The notes beneath the pieces were generated by a model, which was not told the origin of the DNA, did no database searches, and worked only from the letters and a program-made list of their open reading frames with translations. The position numbers and the translations under genes were made by a program. Positions 27,828-33,406 of a stretch of DNA of 40,009 nucleotides are shown here, in pieces; position 1 is the first letter of the stretch; each line of letters begins with the position of its first letter. Source of the stretch: Gammaproteobacteria bacterium (GTDB lineage Bacteria; Pseudomonadota; Gammaproteobacteria; SZUA-229). The DNA is taken from contig WFMW01000049.1 in assembly GCA_015488885.1 (NCBI GenBank), positions 1-40,009 on the forward strand, read 5' to 3'.

Positions 27828-30827
27828 ATGTTGTTAGAATTCGCTGGTTTGCTGGTAGGTAGCGGCCTGCTTATGCTGGTTGTTGGCGCGTTTATTGCCA
27901 GGCAGTATACTCTGCGCTCGAAATTACTGACCGCGTTTCTGATTATTGTGCTGACATCGCTGGGTGTACTGGCATTCCTCGATAGTTATATCATGAGTGA
28001 AAATCTCAGCCAGAGTGCTAATAAGTTGTTGATTATGACAGCACGCAATTTTGCTGAGAAAATTGATGGTCTTACTCGTCAGAACAGTCGTTATATTCAC
28101 ACTGAAGCGGCCTTACCGGCAATCACACAATTTATAATAACCAAGGCAGCCCCCCCCTTTAACCGACACGCTATTCTGGAAATCCTGCATGCACTTCAGT
28201 TGCGTCAGGGCGCGCACATACTTTCTTATGCCATCCTGGATAAAAAAGGCATAAATATTCTCGATACCAATATAGAGGATATTGGTAAAGATGAAAGTAA
28301 GTGGCTGTATTATCAGCAGGTGCTAAAAAAAAGAGGCAGTTATCACTCGCCCGTTCTGTTTAAACACAACCGGCCATACATGGTTTATAGCAGTGCTATT
28401 CGTGATTTATCCGGTAAATTAATTGGTGTGTTGAGGGCAAAATATAGCACCAGTACTTTATCGACAATGTTTGATATGGTTCAGCGTACGGTTGGTCCAG
28501 GTGCCTTTGTGCTACTGCTGGACAGGAATAAGCTTAGACTGGCGGACAGTCGCCGTAAGGATTTTATCTATACCATGGCTGCTGCGCTGGACAAAAAAAA
28601 GCAAAACTTATTGAGACGCCAGCATCGTTTACCTGCAAGAGGCGGACAGGTTGAGAATGAATCGGCAGACTGGTTGAAAAAGCTTACCCTTGCTTCCTAT
28701 GACAGGCCGGTATTTAAAAGCCAGTATAAGGGTTTGGGGGATGCACAGTATTTATCGGCAGTATCCAGGCTGGAAACCATGCCCTGGACAATTATTGTTT
28801 CACAGCCTTTATCCATTATTCTTGAACCGGTAGAGGCGCAGAATAATAGTGCTTTTGTGCTGGTAAGCCTTATTGCTCTGGTTGTTGTATTAATTGTGTT
28901 GGCTTCAACACAATTAATACTTGGGCCGATTAAGCGTTTAACCGCCGTGGTTAAGCAGATTGCTGAGGGCGATCTGGCTGCACAGGCGACGGTAGAAGCT
29001 AATGATGAGGTTGGCACACTGGCGATTGCTTTTAATGAGATGACGCAGAGTGTTACTCATTTAATTGTTGATCTGGAAGATGAAGTAGACAGTCATAAAT
29101 TAACCGCCGACCGTTTACATAAGCTATCACAGGCGATTGAGCAAAGCCCTGTTTCCGTTATGATTACTGACCTTGATGGGGTGATTGAATACGTCAATCC
29201 ACAGTTATGTCGAACTACCGGGTATAAAGCAGATGAACTAATTGGCCAGACACCGCGGATATTTAAATCGGGATTGATGCCAGAAGTGCATTTTAAGAAC
29301 ATGTGGACGGCAATTAGTGTTGGGCAGTCATGGACCGGTGAGTTATATAATAAAAAGAAAAATGGTGACCTGTTCTGGGAAAATGTCACTATCTCACCGA
29401 TTAGAAATGCAAACCAGGAAATTACCCACTATCTGGCGATAAAAGAAGATATTTCCCTGCGTAAGGATTATGAAGAACGGCTGTTGTATCAGGCAAGTTA
29501 TGACAAATTAACCGATCTGCCAAATCGTAGTCTGGCTTATGACCGGATTCAGCAGGCGATTGCCAATGCGATTCGTGAAAACAAACATATTGCTTTGTTG
29601 TATCTTGATTTCGATCATTTTAAAAACATCAATGATACATTGGGTCATGCAGCCGGCGATGAGTTTCTGAAATATATGGCGGGCAGATTAAAGGCCTGTG
29701 TACGTGACTTTGATACGGTGGCGAGGCTGGGCGGTGATGAATTTTTAATCATGCTGATAGAAGTTGATAATGAAGATAACGATGAAAACGATTCTTTTAC
29801 CCGTGTAGTGAAACACAAAACGCAGCAAATTCTACATAGCGTCTCACAACCCTGTGTGATTCATGATATGGGTTTTTCGGTCACCGCCAGTATTGGTATT
29901 GCCATTTTTCCAGAAGATGGTGATGACCCGCATATTCTGTTACGTAATGCCGACACAGCAATGTACCGGAGTAAGCGCAAGGGCAGAGATACTTATGAAA
30001 TTTTTACCACTGAAATGAGTGATGTGGTGATGAAGCGTGTTGAGATTGACAACAAGTTGCGTGGTGCACTGGAAAATGGCGACTTTTACCTGAATTATCA
30101 GGCGTTACTGGATGCCAGAACACGGCGTATTGTGGGCGCGGAAGCCCTGATACGCTGGCACGATAAGACACTTGGTGAAGTTTCACCGGAAGAGTTTGTG
30201 CCGCTGGCAGAAGAAAGCGGTTTAATTGTCGATATTGGCAACTGGGTGCTTGATACGGTTTGCACCGATATTAAACGATGGCGTACCAATAATCATATTA
30301 ATGATTTATATATTGCGGTAAATCTGTCAGCACGTCAGTTTCGGGGCAAGGAAATTGTTAAAAATATTGCTGATACGCTGAAAAAACACGGCCTGCATGG
30401 TGATTGTCTGGAACTGGAAATTACCGAACGCCTGTTAATGAAAAATGTACCCCATGTGATTGCTATCCTTGAACAGTTTAAAAAGATGGATATTCGTTTG
30501 TCCATCGATGATTTTGGTACCGGTTATTCATCCTTAAGTTATTTAAAACGCTTTCCCTTTGACGTATTAAAAATTGATAAAGCTTTTATTGACGATATTG
30601 GCACCGACCCGGATGGTCAGGCATTATGTGATGCCATTGTTGCCATGGCGCACAGTCTGGGGCTGGGCATTATCGGCGAAGGCGTTGAGACTCAGGAGCA
30701 GTTTGACTTTTTGCGTGAACGTGGTGCTGAAACCATACAGGGTTATTTCGTCAGTAAACCACTGCAGGCGGATGAATTTATTCAGTTGATAAAAACAGCC
30801 GAATTGACTGAATCGGCGCAGGAATAA
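27828..30827 (+). CDS. Membrane c-di-GMP enzyme: Cache-HAMP-PAS-GGDEF-EAL
   Basis: 999-aa inner-membrane protein with both c-di-GMP synthesis and breakdown domains. Two transmembrane segments (about 5-25 and 35-53) precede a periplasmic dCache-like sensor of about 290 residues. A further segment at 343-365 leads to HAMP (366-418) and PAS (430-545). The GGDEF motif is intact at 635-639, with the inhibitory I-site RDFD at 626-629. The EAL domain keeps EAL at 772-774 and DDFGTGYSS further on. Both activities are therefore possible. A C8 run at 28150-28157 lies in the sensor part. Its last 46 bp overlap the convergent matrixin gene. Confidence 0.95.
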   Translation: MLLEFAGLLVGSGLLMLVVGAFIARQYTLRSKLLTAFLIIVLTSLGVLAFLDSYIMSENLSQSANKLLIMTARNFAEKIDGLTRQNSRYIHTEAALPAITQFIITKAAPPFNRHAILEILHALQLRQGAHILSYAILDKKGINILDTNIEDIGKDESKWLYYQQVLKKRGSYHSPVLFKHNRPYMVYSSAIRDLSGKLIGVLRAKYSTSTLSTMFDMVQRTVGPGAFVLLLDRNKLRLADSRRKDFIYTMAAALDKKKQNLLRRQHRLPARGGQVENESADWLKKLTLASYDRPVFKSQYKGLGDAQYLSAVSRLETMPWTIIVSQPLSIILEPVEAQNNSAFVLVSLIALVVVLIVLASTQLILGPIKRLTAVVKQIAEGDLAAQATVEANDEVGTLAIAFNEMTQSVTHLIVDLEDEVDSHKLTADRLHKLSQAIEQSPVSVMITDLDGVIEYVNPQLCRTTGYKADELIGQTPRIFKSGLMPEVHFKNMWTAISVGQSWTGELYNKKKNGDLFWENVTISPIRNANQEITHYLAIKEDISLRKDYEERLLYQASYDKLTDLPNRSLAYDRIQQAIANAIRENKHIALLYLDFDHFKNINDTLGHAAGDEFLKYMAGRLKACVRDFDTVARLGGDEFLIMLIEVDNEDNDENDSFTRVVKHKTQQILHSVSQPCVIHDMGFSVTASIGIAIFPEDGDDPHILLRNADTAMYRSKRKGRDTYEIFTTEMSDVVMKRVEIDNKLRGALENGDFYLNYQALLDARTRRIVGAEALIRWHDKTLGEVSPEEFVPLAEESGLIVDIGNWVLDTVCTDIKRWRTNNHINDLYIAVNLSARQFRGKEIVKNIADTLKKHGLHGDCLELEITERLLMKNVPHVIAILEQFKKMDIRLSIDDFGTGYSSLSYLKRFPFDVLKIDKAFIDDIGTDPDGQALCDAIVAMAHSLGLGIIGEGVETQEQFDFLRERGAETIQGYFVSKPLQADEFIQLIKTAELTESAQE
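28150..28157. repeat. C8 homopolymer inside the GGDEF-EAL gene
   Basis: Eight consecutive C residues encode the A-P-P part of KAAPPFNRH in the sensor domain. Such tracts can slip in replication; loss or gain of one C would truncate the protein before its catalytic domains. Confidence 0.9.
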
Positions 30828-32077
30828 TCGCTGTTCAGTCGTCGCATAAGCCACAGCAGCAGGCTGATGAGTAACAGGCTGAATAGATTAAGCTGGCCTC
30901 CACCGCTACCATTATTTACAGGTGTGCCATTGTCACCATTGCTGGTGAAATTAATGGTGATGATACCAGTTGATGCTATTGAACCCACTGTAATCACACT
31001 GGCATTCCCTGTTGTATTACCCTGATAGCTAACCGGATTAATCGGGTTGGGTGGCTGAAAGGATTTATCGGTCGGGTCGCTAGCATAGGGGCCAACCGCT
31101 GAACCAGCGATAAACTCCGGGTTAATCGCATTGGCATGTAGCGTGTAATTTCCCGGCGGTACAAATAACTGGTAGTGGCCATTATTTTGCCGCAAATAAT
31201 CCGATACGACACTAATGACTGCCCCGGTCGTGGTGTTTTCAGCCCAGATATTTGCGCCGAGGATAGCGTTACCCTGTGGGTCAACAAAAACACCCTGTAT
31301 TTCACCATATTGCTGATTGAAGTTTGTTGCCGGGTAGAGGGCAGATACGGCGCTAATATCATCAGCATGTAACGAAGGCGTAGAGCGACAGATAAAGGGG
31401 TACATCAGTGCATACTGATCAGCTGATCGGGTTGAACAAACCCGTGGGAAACCGGTGGCACTTTCCTGATTTGAAATATTGGTCTGCGTATGGTCAAGGC
31501 CAAATAAATGGCCTAATTCATGAGCAATAGTTATGACCATATCATTATTGGTTTTAAAACCAGGGATAGTGTTTTTACCAGTGATAACTGAATAACCCCT
31601 GACAAGCTGATTGCCGCTGAGAGTGGTGCTGGTAAAGCCGACCGTATTACTGCTCTGGTTTACCCCAAACTGCTTGTCAATAATACTGCCATCGCTGTCA
31701 TAGATAATAAAGCTGTCGGTGCTATTAATAAACTCGGGGCTACCTAAAAAAGTATTGAAATTACCAGCATTTATATCCTGGCTGATATCTGTACCTGGTA
31801 ATAGCTGAATGCTGGAGGTGATAATCTGGTTCCAGACATCAAAGGCCTGTTGCAGGAGAGCATCTGCCTGAGTATTGGTTCGATTACCTAATGCCCCGGG
31901 GTCGATATGTAACACAATATGGGGATTACTAAAAGCCGCAGGTTGATGGCTGGTGGAGACAAATAAGGGGCCGCCAGCGTTTACCGTGATGCTGTACAAA
32001 GCCAGCACAGGAAATAAAGGGTTAATGTTTTTGTGGCGCAGGAAGAGCGTTAAAAATAATTGAACGATGTACATCAT
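30782..32077 (-). CDS. Matrixin-like exported metalloprotease, GlyGly-CTERM tail
   Basis: 431-aa exported zinc protease. The N-terminus is hydrophobic with a likely signal peptide ending near residue 34. HELGHLFGLDH at 186-196 is the metzincin zinc site, and LMYP at 224-227 provides the Met-turn. A carboxypeptidase-regulatory-like beta domain follows (about 258-318). At 392-413 Gly-Gly-Gly leads to a hydrophobic helix and Arg-Arg, the GlyGly-CTERM pattern processed by rhombosortase and linked to type II secretion. Eighteen residues follow the Arg pair, which is unusual, and their codons overlap the neighbouring GGDEF-EAL gene. The start ATG overlaps the upstream stop by one base. Confidence 0.88.
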   Translation of the reverse strand: MMYIVQLFLTLFLRHKNINPLFPVLALYSITVNAGGPLFVSTSHQPAAFSNPHIVLHIDPGALGNRTNTQADALLQQAFDVWNQIITSSIQLLPGTDISQDINAGNFNTFLGSPEFINSTDSFIIYDSDGSIIDKQFGVNQSSNTVGFTSTTLSGNQLVRGYSVITGKNTIPGFKTNNDMVITIAHELGHLFGLDHTQTNISNQESATGFPRVCSTRSADQYALMYPFICRSTPSLHADDISAVSALYPATNFNQQYGEIQGVFVDPQGNAILGANIWAENTTTGAVISVVSDYLRQNNGHYQLFVPPGNYTLHANAINPEFIAGSAVGPYASDPTDKSFQPPNPINPVSYQGNTTGNASVITVGSIASTGIITINFTSNGDNGTPVNNGSGGGQLNLFSLLLISLLLWLMRRLNSDYSCADSVNSAVFIN

Positions 32078-32694
32078 TACTCTGTGTTCAGGGTGCGTAT
32101 GTGGTTGATGAAATCGCTCAGATAGGCCTTGCCAGGGTGGTCAGGGCTGGTGGCTAATGGTACGCTGATGGTCGTGCCTGCACGTGCCAGTTTGTTATTG
32201 CGTTGACGACTGTTTGTGGCTGTTGCTGAATGTCGGCTTGACACGGTTTTCTTACCATTAACCAGCGTTATCGCAAAACTACCCTGATACAGTCCTAGCG
32301 GGCTACAGAAGCCCGATTTTGAAGGGGTAGGTAAAAAGACCACATATTCCTTACCTACGGTAAAAGTTGGCACACCCTGTACATACATGGCAAGCGAACT
32401 ATGTGGTAGTTTGCCACCAATCTGCTTGATAGTGTATTGTTTCCCGGGCTGACCTTTAATGGCTTCAATAATCTGGAAATCGGTATAGGTGACAATTTGT
32501 CTGCTCAGCGGATCCTGCTTGACACGGTTGGCCAGTACCCTGCCATGAAAAATCATCGTTGCCTGCTGCGACAGCTGGGTTAAGTTGAGCGGGATAACCA
32601 TGGTGGCTTTTGCTGTAGCCATAAACAGGCTCAGTGAGATACTCAATAATAACAATGAGATATTTATATTAGCAATCATTTTTCTGTATGTCAT
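32077..32694 (-). CDS. Exported protein of unknown function, partner of matrixin
   Basis: 205 aa with a clear signal peptide (hydrophobic 10-25, cleavage near AKA at 28-30). The mature part starts MVIPLNLTQLSQQATMIFHGRVL and contains TYTDFQIIEAIKGQPG and FTVGKEYVVFLPTP, a pattern I recall from small exported proteins found beside matrixin-like proteases; no enzymatic motif is visible. Its TAA stop and the protease ATG share one base, so the two are translationally coupled. It could be an inhibitor, chaperone or substrate-binding partner of the protease; that is inference from coupling only. Confidence 0.7.
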   Translation of the reverse strand: MTYRKMIANINISLLLLSISLSLFMATAKATMVIPLNLTQLSQQATMIFHGRVLANRVKQDPLSRQIVTYTDFQIIEAIKGQPGKQYTIKQIGGKLPHSSLAMYVQGVPTFTVGKEYVVFLPTPSKSGFCSPLGLYQGSFAITLVNGKKTVSSRHSATATNSRQRNNKLARAGTTISVPLATSPDHPGKAYLSDFINHIRTLNTE

Positions 32695-33001: not shown

Positions 33002-33406
33002 ATGGATTCTCACCCGCTACAACAAAAAATTTATCGCACCCAGAAAGTGATGCATGCCGTTGATGAATGGGGCTTAAGCGGTGAACAAATTCTGGTGCTA
33101 CTGGATTTCCCCGTTGGCGAGCGAACGCGCCATCTACAGAAATACCGTAAAGATACCCCGTTCCCCGATGATGAAAAAATAAATTGCCGGGTGACCTTTC
33201 TGCTGGGTATTATCGATGCTCTGCGTACCACTTATCCTCGCAATGTTCATATGGGTGCGCGCTGGATGGCGATGCCGCATACTCGTCTGCAGAACCGTTG
33301 TCCGTTACAGGCGATGCTGGAGGATGGCGAACAAGGTGTGGTTGCCGTACTGTCGGAACTGGACTGTGCCTATGCGTGGGAGTTGAGCGGTTCCAGCATT
33401 TCCTGA
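33002..33406 (+). CDS. Orphan MbcA/ParS/Xre antitoxin-like protein
   Basis: 134-aa cytoplasmic protein. The C-terminal NRCPLQAMLEDGEQGVVAVLSELD segment matches the toxin-binding domain (formerly DUF2384) of MbcA/ParS/Xre antitoxins, and the N-terminal helical part (AVDEWGLSGEQILVLLDFP) fits the Xre-like region of the same group. In complete systems a RES-domain toxin gene lies next to it; here the next gene is the convergent djlA and upstream is the exported-protein operon, so no toxin partner is present. It may be a solitary regulator. Such stand-alone members are common. Confidence 0.72.
   Translation: MDSHPLQQKIYRTQKVMHAVDEWGLSGEQILVLLDFPVGERTRHLQKYRKDTPFPDDEKINCRVTFLLGIIDALRTTYPRNVHMGARWMAMPHTRLQNRCPLQAMLEDGEQGVVAVLSELDCAYAWELSGSSIS

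What the first reader, a model, noticed from the sequence alone, without database searches (positions are those of the whole stretch)
30782..32694. Coupled two-gene export operon: unknown secreted protein plus GlyGly-CTERM matrixin
The stop of the first gene and the start of the second share one base (TAATG), a sign of linked function. The protease has the full HExxHxxGxxH site, a Met-turn and a GlyGly-CTERM-type tail, which predicts rhombosortase processing after type II export. The partner has a signal peptide and no known domain that I can name. A secreted protease with a dedicated partner would be a compact secretion or predation-type system.
Basis: partly seen in the sequence, partly recalled or inferred. 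Interest (0 to 1): 0.55.

Follow-up and report, generated by a model that had tools for sequence, protein, structure and literature searches.

The report
Bacterial TIMP-like protein–matrixin gene pair
Some uncultured marine bacteria carry a secreted MMP-type protease genetically coupled to a small protein whose predicted shape is that of TIMPs, the proteins that hold such proteases in check in animals, so the pair is probably a protease with its own built-in safety catch.

Summary
In detail: two minus-strand genes share one base (TAATG), the second encoding a matrixin with HELGHLFGLDH, a Met-turn and a GlyGly-CTERM-like tail. The genome has a true rhombosortase (149 bits, cut-off 84) beside type II secretion genes. 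The pair is strongly conserved: in 27 of 27 assessable loci of relatives the protease lies directly downstream or, once, is fused; likewise in 8 of 8 further, mostly betaproteobacterial loci. In the host family the same 25 of 54 genomes hold both genes. The tail is an accessory: it varies, and betaproteobacterial versions lack it. The news is the partner. It matches no Pfam or NCBIfam family, but its AlphaFold model (pLDDT 84.8) has the NTR fold with N-TIMPs as best matches (Z 10.6), its predicted mature N-terminus falling on TIMP Cys1. The protease model is closest to karilysin and starts where active MMPs start, leaving no prodomain. Best explanation: a co-translated TIMP-like inhibitor keeps a prodomain-less matrixin silent until export. 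Inhibition and the zinc-binding N-terminus are inferred; a co-fold showed no docking. Precedents: potempin A–karilysin and Listeria Mtz–Tim. New variant of a known kind.

The parts
32077..32694 (-). Partner gene, 205 aa, exported NTR/TIMP-like protein (proposed inhibitor)
   Evidence: ORF; fold; no Pfam/NCBIfam family
32605..32694 (-). Partner signal peptide (aa 1-30, ending AKA before T31); judged by eye, -1 Ala invariant in 32 of 32 aligned rows
32080..32604 (-). Mature partner, begins T31-M-V-I-P; N-terminus aligns with TIMP-1 residue 1
   Evidence: model residue 2 on TIMP-1 residue 1
32075..32079 (-). TAATG stop/start overlap, one shared base (32077)
30782..32077 (-). Matrixin gene, 431 aa
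31976..32077 (-). Protease signal peptide (aa 1-34, ending VNA before GGP), judged by eye
   Evidence: alignment A8
31316..31975 (-). Catalytic domain, no prodomain before it
   Evidence: mature start of the L021 orthologue, model residue 196, aligns with karilysin residue 35
31490..31522 (-). Zinc site HELGHLFGLDH (aa 186-196)
31403..31405 (-). Met-turn methionine M225, invariant in 22 of 22
31124..31300 (-). CarboxypepD_reg domain (aa 260-318)
   Evidence: PF13620 33.6 bits, cut-off 32.3
30848..30904 (-). GlyGly-CTERM-like tail (sub-threshold match to TIGR03501, 10.7 bits)

Best explanation
The locus encodes a secreted matrixin and its own TIMP-like guardian. Both proteins enter the periplasm by the Sec route. 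The matrixin is made without a prodomain, so it could attack the envelope as soon as it folds. The partner, made just before it from the same mRNA and coupled to it in translation, has an NTR/TIMP-type OB-fold and binds the matrixin active site, probably with its conserved free N-terminus ((T/S/A/M)-(S/T)-V-L-P) in the cleft as TIMPs do. In this lineage rhombosortase then trims the GlyGly-type tail and the type II system exports the enzyme to the cell surface, where it becomes active after leaving or shedding the partner. Shown here: gene coupling, its conservation, the fusion, presence of rhombosortase and T2SS genes. Predicted: the two folds, the N-terminal register, the missing prodomain. 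Inferred: inhibition, binding mode, export order, activation.
For: Pairing: partner homologues in 29 of 193 genomes; 27 of the 29 have downstream DNA to judge, and in 27 of 27 a HExxH metalloprotease lies directly downstream on the same strand, 26 as a separate gene and 1 (G090) as a 643-aa fusion (fusion homology by hhalign 95.6%, E 1.2e-8). 8 of 8 new loci, Candidatus Nitrotoga included, are paired, mostly with overlapping stop and start. The reverse search with the protease hits the same 25 of 54 family genomes and none of the other 29, and in G075, where the partner was not found by BLAST, an NTR-like ORF overlaps the matrixin by 4 nt (88.9%, E 2.4e-6; two unrelated proteins gave 0.2%). 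Fold: AF2 pLDDT 84.8, pTM 0.79; Foldseek top hit TIMP-2, E 8.3e-4, its first 23 rows all TIMP/NTR chains; VIA-align TIMP-1 Z 10.6, rmsd 2.7 over 114 residues, and N-TIMP-3 Z 10.6. The -1 Ala is invariant (32 of 32) and position +2 is Ser/Thr in 28 of 32. Protease: karilysin Z 12.6, MMPs next; domain start equals the predicted mature start.
Against: The single-chain co-fold of an orthologous pair (L021) gave pTM 0.62 with partner residues 1-4 below pLDDT 50, so no docking is shown. The NTR fold also occurs in agrin NtA, complement C3-C5 and PCOLCE, which are not known to me as MMP inhibitors, at Z 8-10. The TIMP disulphides are missing: no conserved Cys. One matrixin paralogue (G038, L136) has no partner upstream, and in G050 the partner frame is broken by two stops beside an intact protease. 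Partner and protease distances correlate hardly better (0.73) than partner and rhombosortase (0.71), so no special co-evolution is seen (14 genomes).
Confidence: 0.6

Rival explanations
1. The partner is a trans-acting foldase or secretion chaperone (a prodomain split off as a separate protein) that helps the matrixin fold and reach the type II system, and inhibits little or not at all.
For: Upstream, co-translated position and one natural N-terminal fusion would suit a prodomain in trans; the protease has no prodomain of its own.
Against: The predicted fold is that of known inhibitors rather than of known steric foldases. Inhibition and folding help do not exclude each other.
Confidence: 0.17
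2. The partner is a substrate or effector: the matrixin cleaves it and the released fragment acts on the envelope, as reported for Listeria Mtz-Tim.
For: Mtz cleaves the TIMP-like Tim and the pair changes the cell wall in trans (PMC8235301, passages and one section read).
Against: Tim is a lipoprotein encoded after the protease and loses about 50 N-terminal residues; here the partner comes first, has no lipobox cysteine, and its N-terminus is conserved.
Confidence: 0.1
3. The NTR domain is a secreted adaptor or surface-binding module that travels with the protease and sets its target or location, without touching the active site.
For: Several NTR domains are binding modules (agrin NtA Z 10.4, PCOLCE Z 9.2); the co-fold shows no docking.
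Against: One-to-one pairing with a metalloprotease in every assessable locus.
Confidence: 0.1
4. One reading: a compact rhombosortase-dependent secretion or predation system.
For: Rhombosortase and T2SS genes present; GG tail in 15 of 22 complete proteases.
Against: Pairing persists where the tail is absent; predation genes were not sought; rhombosortase is equally frequent without the pair.
Confidence: 0.03

Closest known systems
Potempin A-karilysin (Tannerella forsythia; PDB 8B2Q)
   Same: Inhibitor gene directly upstream of the protease gene (PMC7296668, passages); the protease is a matrixin, and karilysin is the best structural match here (Z 12.6). Recalled, not from a call: potempin A is an OB-fold.
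   Different: Potempins are small lipoproteins and KLIKK proteases have another C-terminal domain and export route (recalled); here the partner is a 175-residue protein without lipobox and with a TIMP/NTR fold, and the enzyme lacks a prodomain and bears a GlyGly-type tail. The partner profile matches no PDB chain by sequence but a designed protein.
Listeria Mtz-Tim pair (PMC8235301)
   Same: Secreted metzincin plus TIMP-like protein encoded side by side.
   Different: Gram-positive, phage-associated, protease first, Tim a lipoprotein, TIMP likeness from Phyre2; reported to be cleaved by the protease.
Metazoan TIMP-MMP
   Same: Same predicted folds on both sides; predicted mature N-terminus of the partner on TIMP Cys1.
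   Different: No disulphides, no Cys1, no C-terminal TIMP domain, no detectable sequence similarity.
GlyGly-CTERM/rhombosortase (VesB of Vibrio cholerae)
   Same: Tripartite tail, rhombosortase and T2SS in the genome; the path is taken from PMC6219818 and PMC3237569 (passages).
   Different: The tail scores below the TIGR03501 cut-off; VesB has a propeptide, this protease seems to have none.

Membership tests
Matrixin (MMP, M10) protease | HExxHxxGxxH and Met-turn | tested here: met
   zinc-site residues and Met invariant in 22 of 22 aligned proteases; PF00413 32.5 bits over cut-off 24
Matrixin (MMP, M10) protease | MMP catalytic fold | tested here: met
   model of the L021 orthologue: karilysin Z 12.6, rmsd 2.6, 158 residues; MMPs Z about 12
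Matrixin (MMP, M10) protease | Prodomain with a latency switch | tested here: not met
   domain starts at the predicted mature N-terminus (model 196 on karilysin 35); signal peptide end judged by eye
TIMP | N-terminal NTR/OB fold | tested here: met
   (prediction)
TIMP | Mature N-terminus at the fold position that chelates zinc | tested here: inconclusive
   register agrees with TIMP-1 residue 1; co-fold shows no docking
TIMP | Cys1-X-Cys3 and the disulphides | tested here: not met
   no conserved Cys in 25 partners; motif from PMC9409782
TIMP | Inhibits metzincins | not testable with these tools
   needs purified proteins
Potempin | Gene directly upstream of its protease | tested here: met
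   definition
Potempin | Lipoprotein signal | tested here: not met
   no Cys at the mature N-terminus in 32 of 32 rows; that potempins are lipoproteins is
Potempin | Sequence or fold homology to potempin A | tested here: inconclusive
   no sequence hit; potempin chain not among the listed fold matches of the partner
GlyGly-CTERM protein | Tripartite tail scoring over the TIGR03501 cut-off | tested here: not met
   10.7 bits against 15.5; the architecture itself is present
GlyGly-CTERM protein | Rhombosortase in the genome | tested here: met
   149.3 bits, cut-off 84; GLSGVLHGLF stretch read in the ORF

The most novel reading that the evidence does not exclude
The MMP-TIMP couple is not an animal invention: bacteria hold it as a translationally coupled gene pair, once as one polypeptide, with the TIMP trick of a free N-terminus on the zinc working without any disulphide; animal TIMPs and MMPs, and the karilysin that has been called a xenologue of animal MMPs, may descend from such bacterial pairs.
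Probability: 0.12. Interest if true: 0.88.

Novelty: new variant of a known kind. Interest (0 to 1): 0.62.

Why it matters
It gives a likely function to a protein family without a Pfam or NCBIfam model, shows a Gram-negative gene pair in which a protease lacking a prodomain may depend on a TIMP-like protein, and offers a simple system (two short genes, a natural fusion, no disulphides) to ask how little a TIMP-type inhibitor needs. It also makes the origin of the MMP-TIMP couple testable by structure.

Tried and rejected
Cysteine switch in trans: rejected, because the partner cysteine is not conserved. PDB sequence search with the partner profile: only a designed protein at E 0.017, taken as chance. 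Pfam, NCBIfam and PHROGs with the partner: no family (weak hits taken as chance). Plasmid search: no match. Phylum-wide draw: only the own genome in 398, so the family is rare. A first scan of named genomes with the window protein alone found nothing. A second GlyGly-CTERM candidate (C5) lies antisense in another gene and was dropped. Mirror-tree test on 14 genomes: no signal beyond common descent. Alignments A4 and A6 placed some rows wrongly and were replaced by A7. Potempin A was not listed among fold matches of the partner, which excludes nothing. The 2023 potempin structure paper was not found in the library; what I say of its fold is recalled.

Full report
Observation. The two genes are as described: partner 32077-32694 and protease 30782-32077, both minus strand, sharing base 32077 in TAATG. 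The protease has HELGHLFGLDH, a Met-turn, a CarboxypepD_reg domain and a glycine-hydrophobic-arginine tail. The tail scores 10.7 bits for TIGR03501, under the cut-off of 15.5.

Genome context. A rhombosortase (149.3 bits, cut-off 84) lies at G000:C23:95684-96136, divergent from a run of gspG- to gspN-like genes (names by my reading of the ORFs); a GspD is at C5. Of 58 genomes searched, 48 have a rhombosortase over the cut-off. Combining for the 54 genomes of the host family (G000-G053), it is present in 22 of 25 with the pair and 25 of 29 without; the three pair-bearing genomes lacking it are 84, 85 and 65% complete. Rhombosortase is thus available but not tied to the pair.

Pairing. Partner homologues occur in 29 of 193 relatives, the own genome included. 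Two loci (L022, L029) end at a contig edge; in both genomes the protease sits at an edge of another contig. In the other 27 the metalloprotease is directly downstream (26) or fused (1). The spacing runs from a 4-base overlap to 24 bases in most (L023 can be read as an 11-base overlap). In L011 the partner frame is broken by two stops. The protease search found 27 of 193 genomes; within the family they are exactly the 25 with a partner. Outside it, G075 has a partner-like ORF overlapping by 4 bases, missed by BLAST. Against the rule, G038 has two extra matrixins: L136 has no partner, L135 is cut by the contig edge.

The partner. The mature window protein, aligned with 31 relatives (A3), folds with pLDDT 84.8 and pTM 0.79. 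Foldseek ranks TIMP-2 first (E 8.3e-4) and its first 23 rows are TIMPs, agrin NtA and the PCOLCE NTR domain; its TM-scores are low (about 0.3-0.5). VIA-align gives TIMP-1 and N-TIMP-3 Z 10.6, NtA 10.4, complement NTR domains about 8-9.4. In most TIMP-1 rows model residue 2, the first residue after the predicted signal-peptidase site, aligns with residue 1 of TIMP; agrin NtA, not an MMP inhibitor to my knowledge, also aligns near its N-terminus, so the register alone proves nothing. The -1 Ala is invariant in 32 rows and +2 is Ser or Thr in 28. That TIMP residue 2 is Thr or Ser and residue 5 is Pro is recalled, not from a call. TIMP Cys1 coordinates the zinc (PMC9409782, passages). Here no cysteine is conserved, so if the mechanism is shared it works without the disulphide clamp.

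The protease. In a one-chain model of the L021 pair (stop read as Gln, 30-row alignment A7) the catalytic domain matches karilysin (Z 12.6) and MMPs. The match begins at model 196, the predicted mature N-terminus, where active MMPs begin. Hence no room for a prodomain, and a reason for an external inhibitor. The same model did not dock the partner N-terminus (residues 1-4 pLDDT under 50; pTM 0.62), so the binding mode is not shown.

The tail. Of 22 complete or nearly complete proteases (A8), 15 have GG by my pattern and 7 do not; one of 22 hits TIGR03501 at E up to 1. All seven without GG come from genomes with a rhombosortase over the cut-off. Six protease tails loci were printed (five betaproteobacterial, and L095, titled Ectothiorhodospiraceae): none has such a tail. 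Surface anchoring by the VesB route (PMC6219818, passages) is therefore likely for this lineage but not general.

Comparison. Bacterial protease-inhibitor operons with the inhibitor first are known as potempins (PMC7296668, passages; PMC13340143, passages), and a metzincin-TIMP-like pair is known in Listeria (PMC8235301, passages and section 4.1); that paper states that its authors found no record of bacterial TIMP-like proteins. My searches (a library of 5.39 million open papers) showed no description of this family, which does not prove there is none. Filing: the protease is a matrixin without a prodomain; the partner works like, but is not filed as, a TIMP or a potempin.

Verdict. The pair is real and conserved, the partner fold is a strong prediction, inhibition is the most likely function (0.6), and the binding mode is open.

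Noticed in passing
window 33002-33406 (+): 134-aa protein with an Xre/MbcA/ParS toxin-binding C-terminal domain (PF09722) and no toxin-like gene obvious beside it: an orphan antitoxin-like gene.
   Followed up: no
L006, L012, L017, L020, L021, L023 protease tails: In one genus (g11) the glycine motif is replaced by an LFG/ILG-x-x-S/N stretch before the hydrophobic part although rhombosortase is present: perhaps a shifted recognition motif.
   Followed up: partly
L136 1572-2816 (-): Matrixin paralogue without a partner, about 300 bases from a transposase-like ORF.
   Followed up: partly
L068 3641-5572 (-): Natural fusion of partner domain and metalloprotease with HEVGHSLLGQVH, one residue longer than the classical zinc motif.
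   Followed up: partly
L011 (G050:C73): Partner frame broken by two stops beside an intact matrixin in a 65% complete genome.
   Followed up: no
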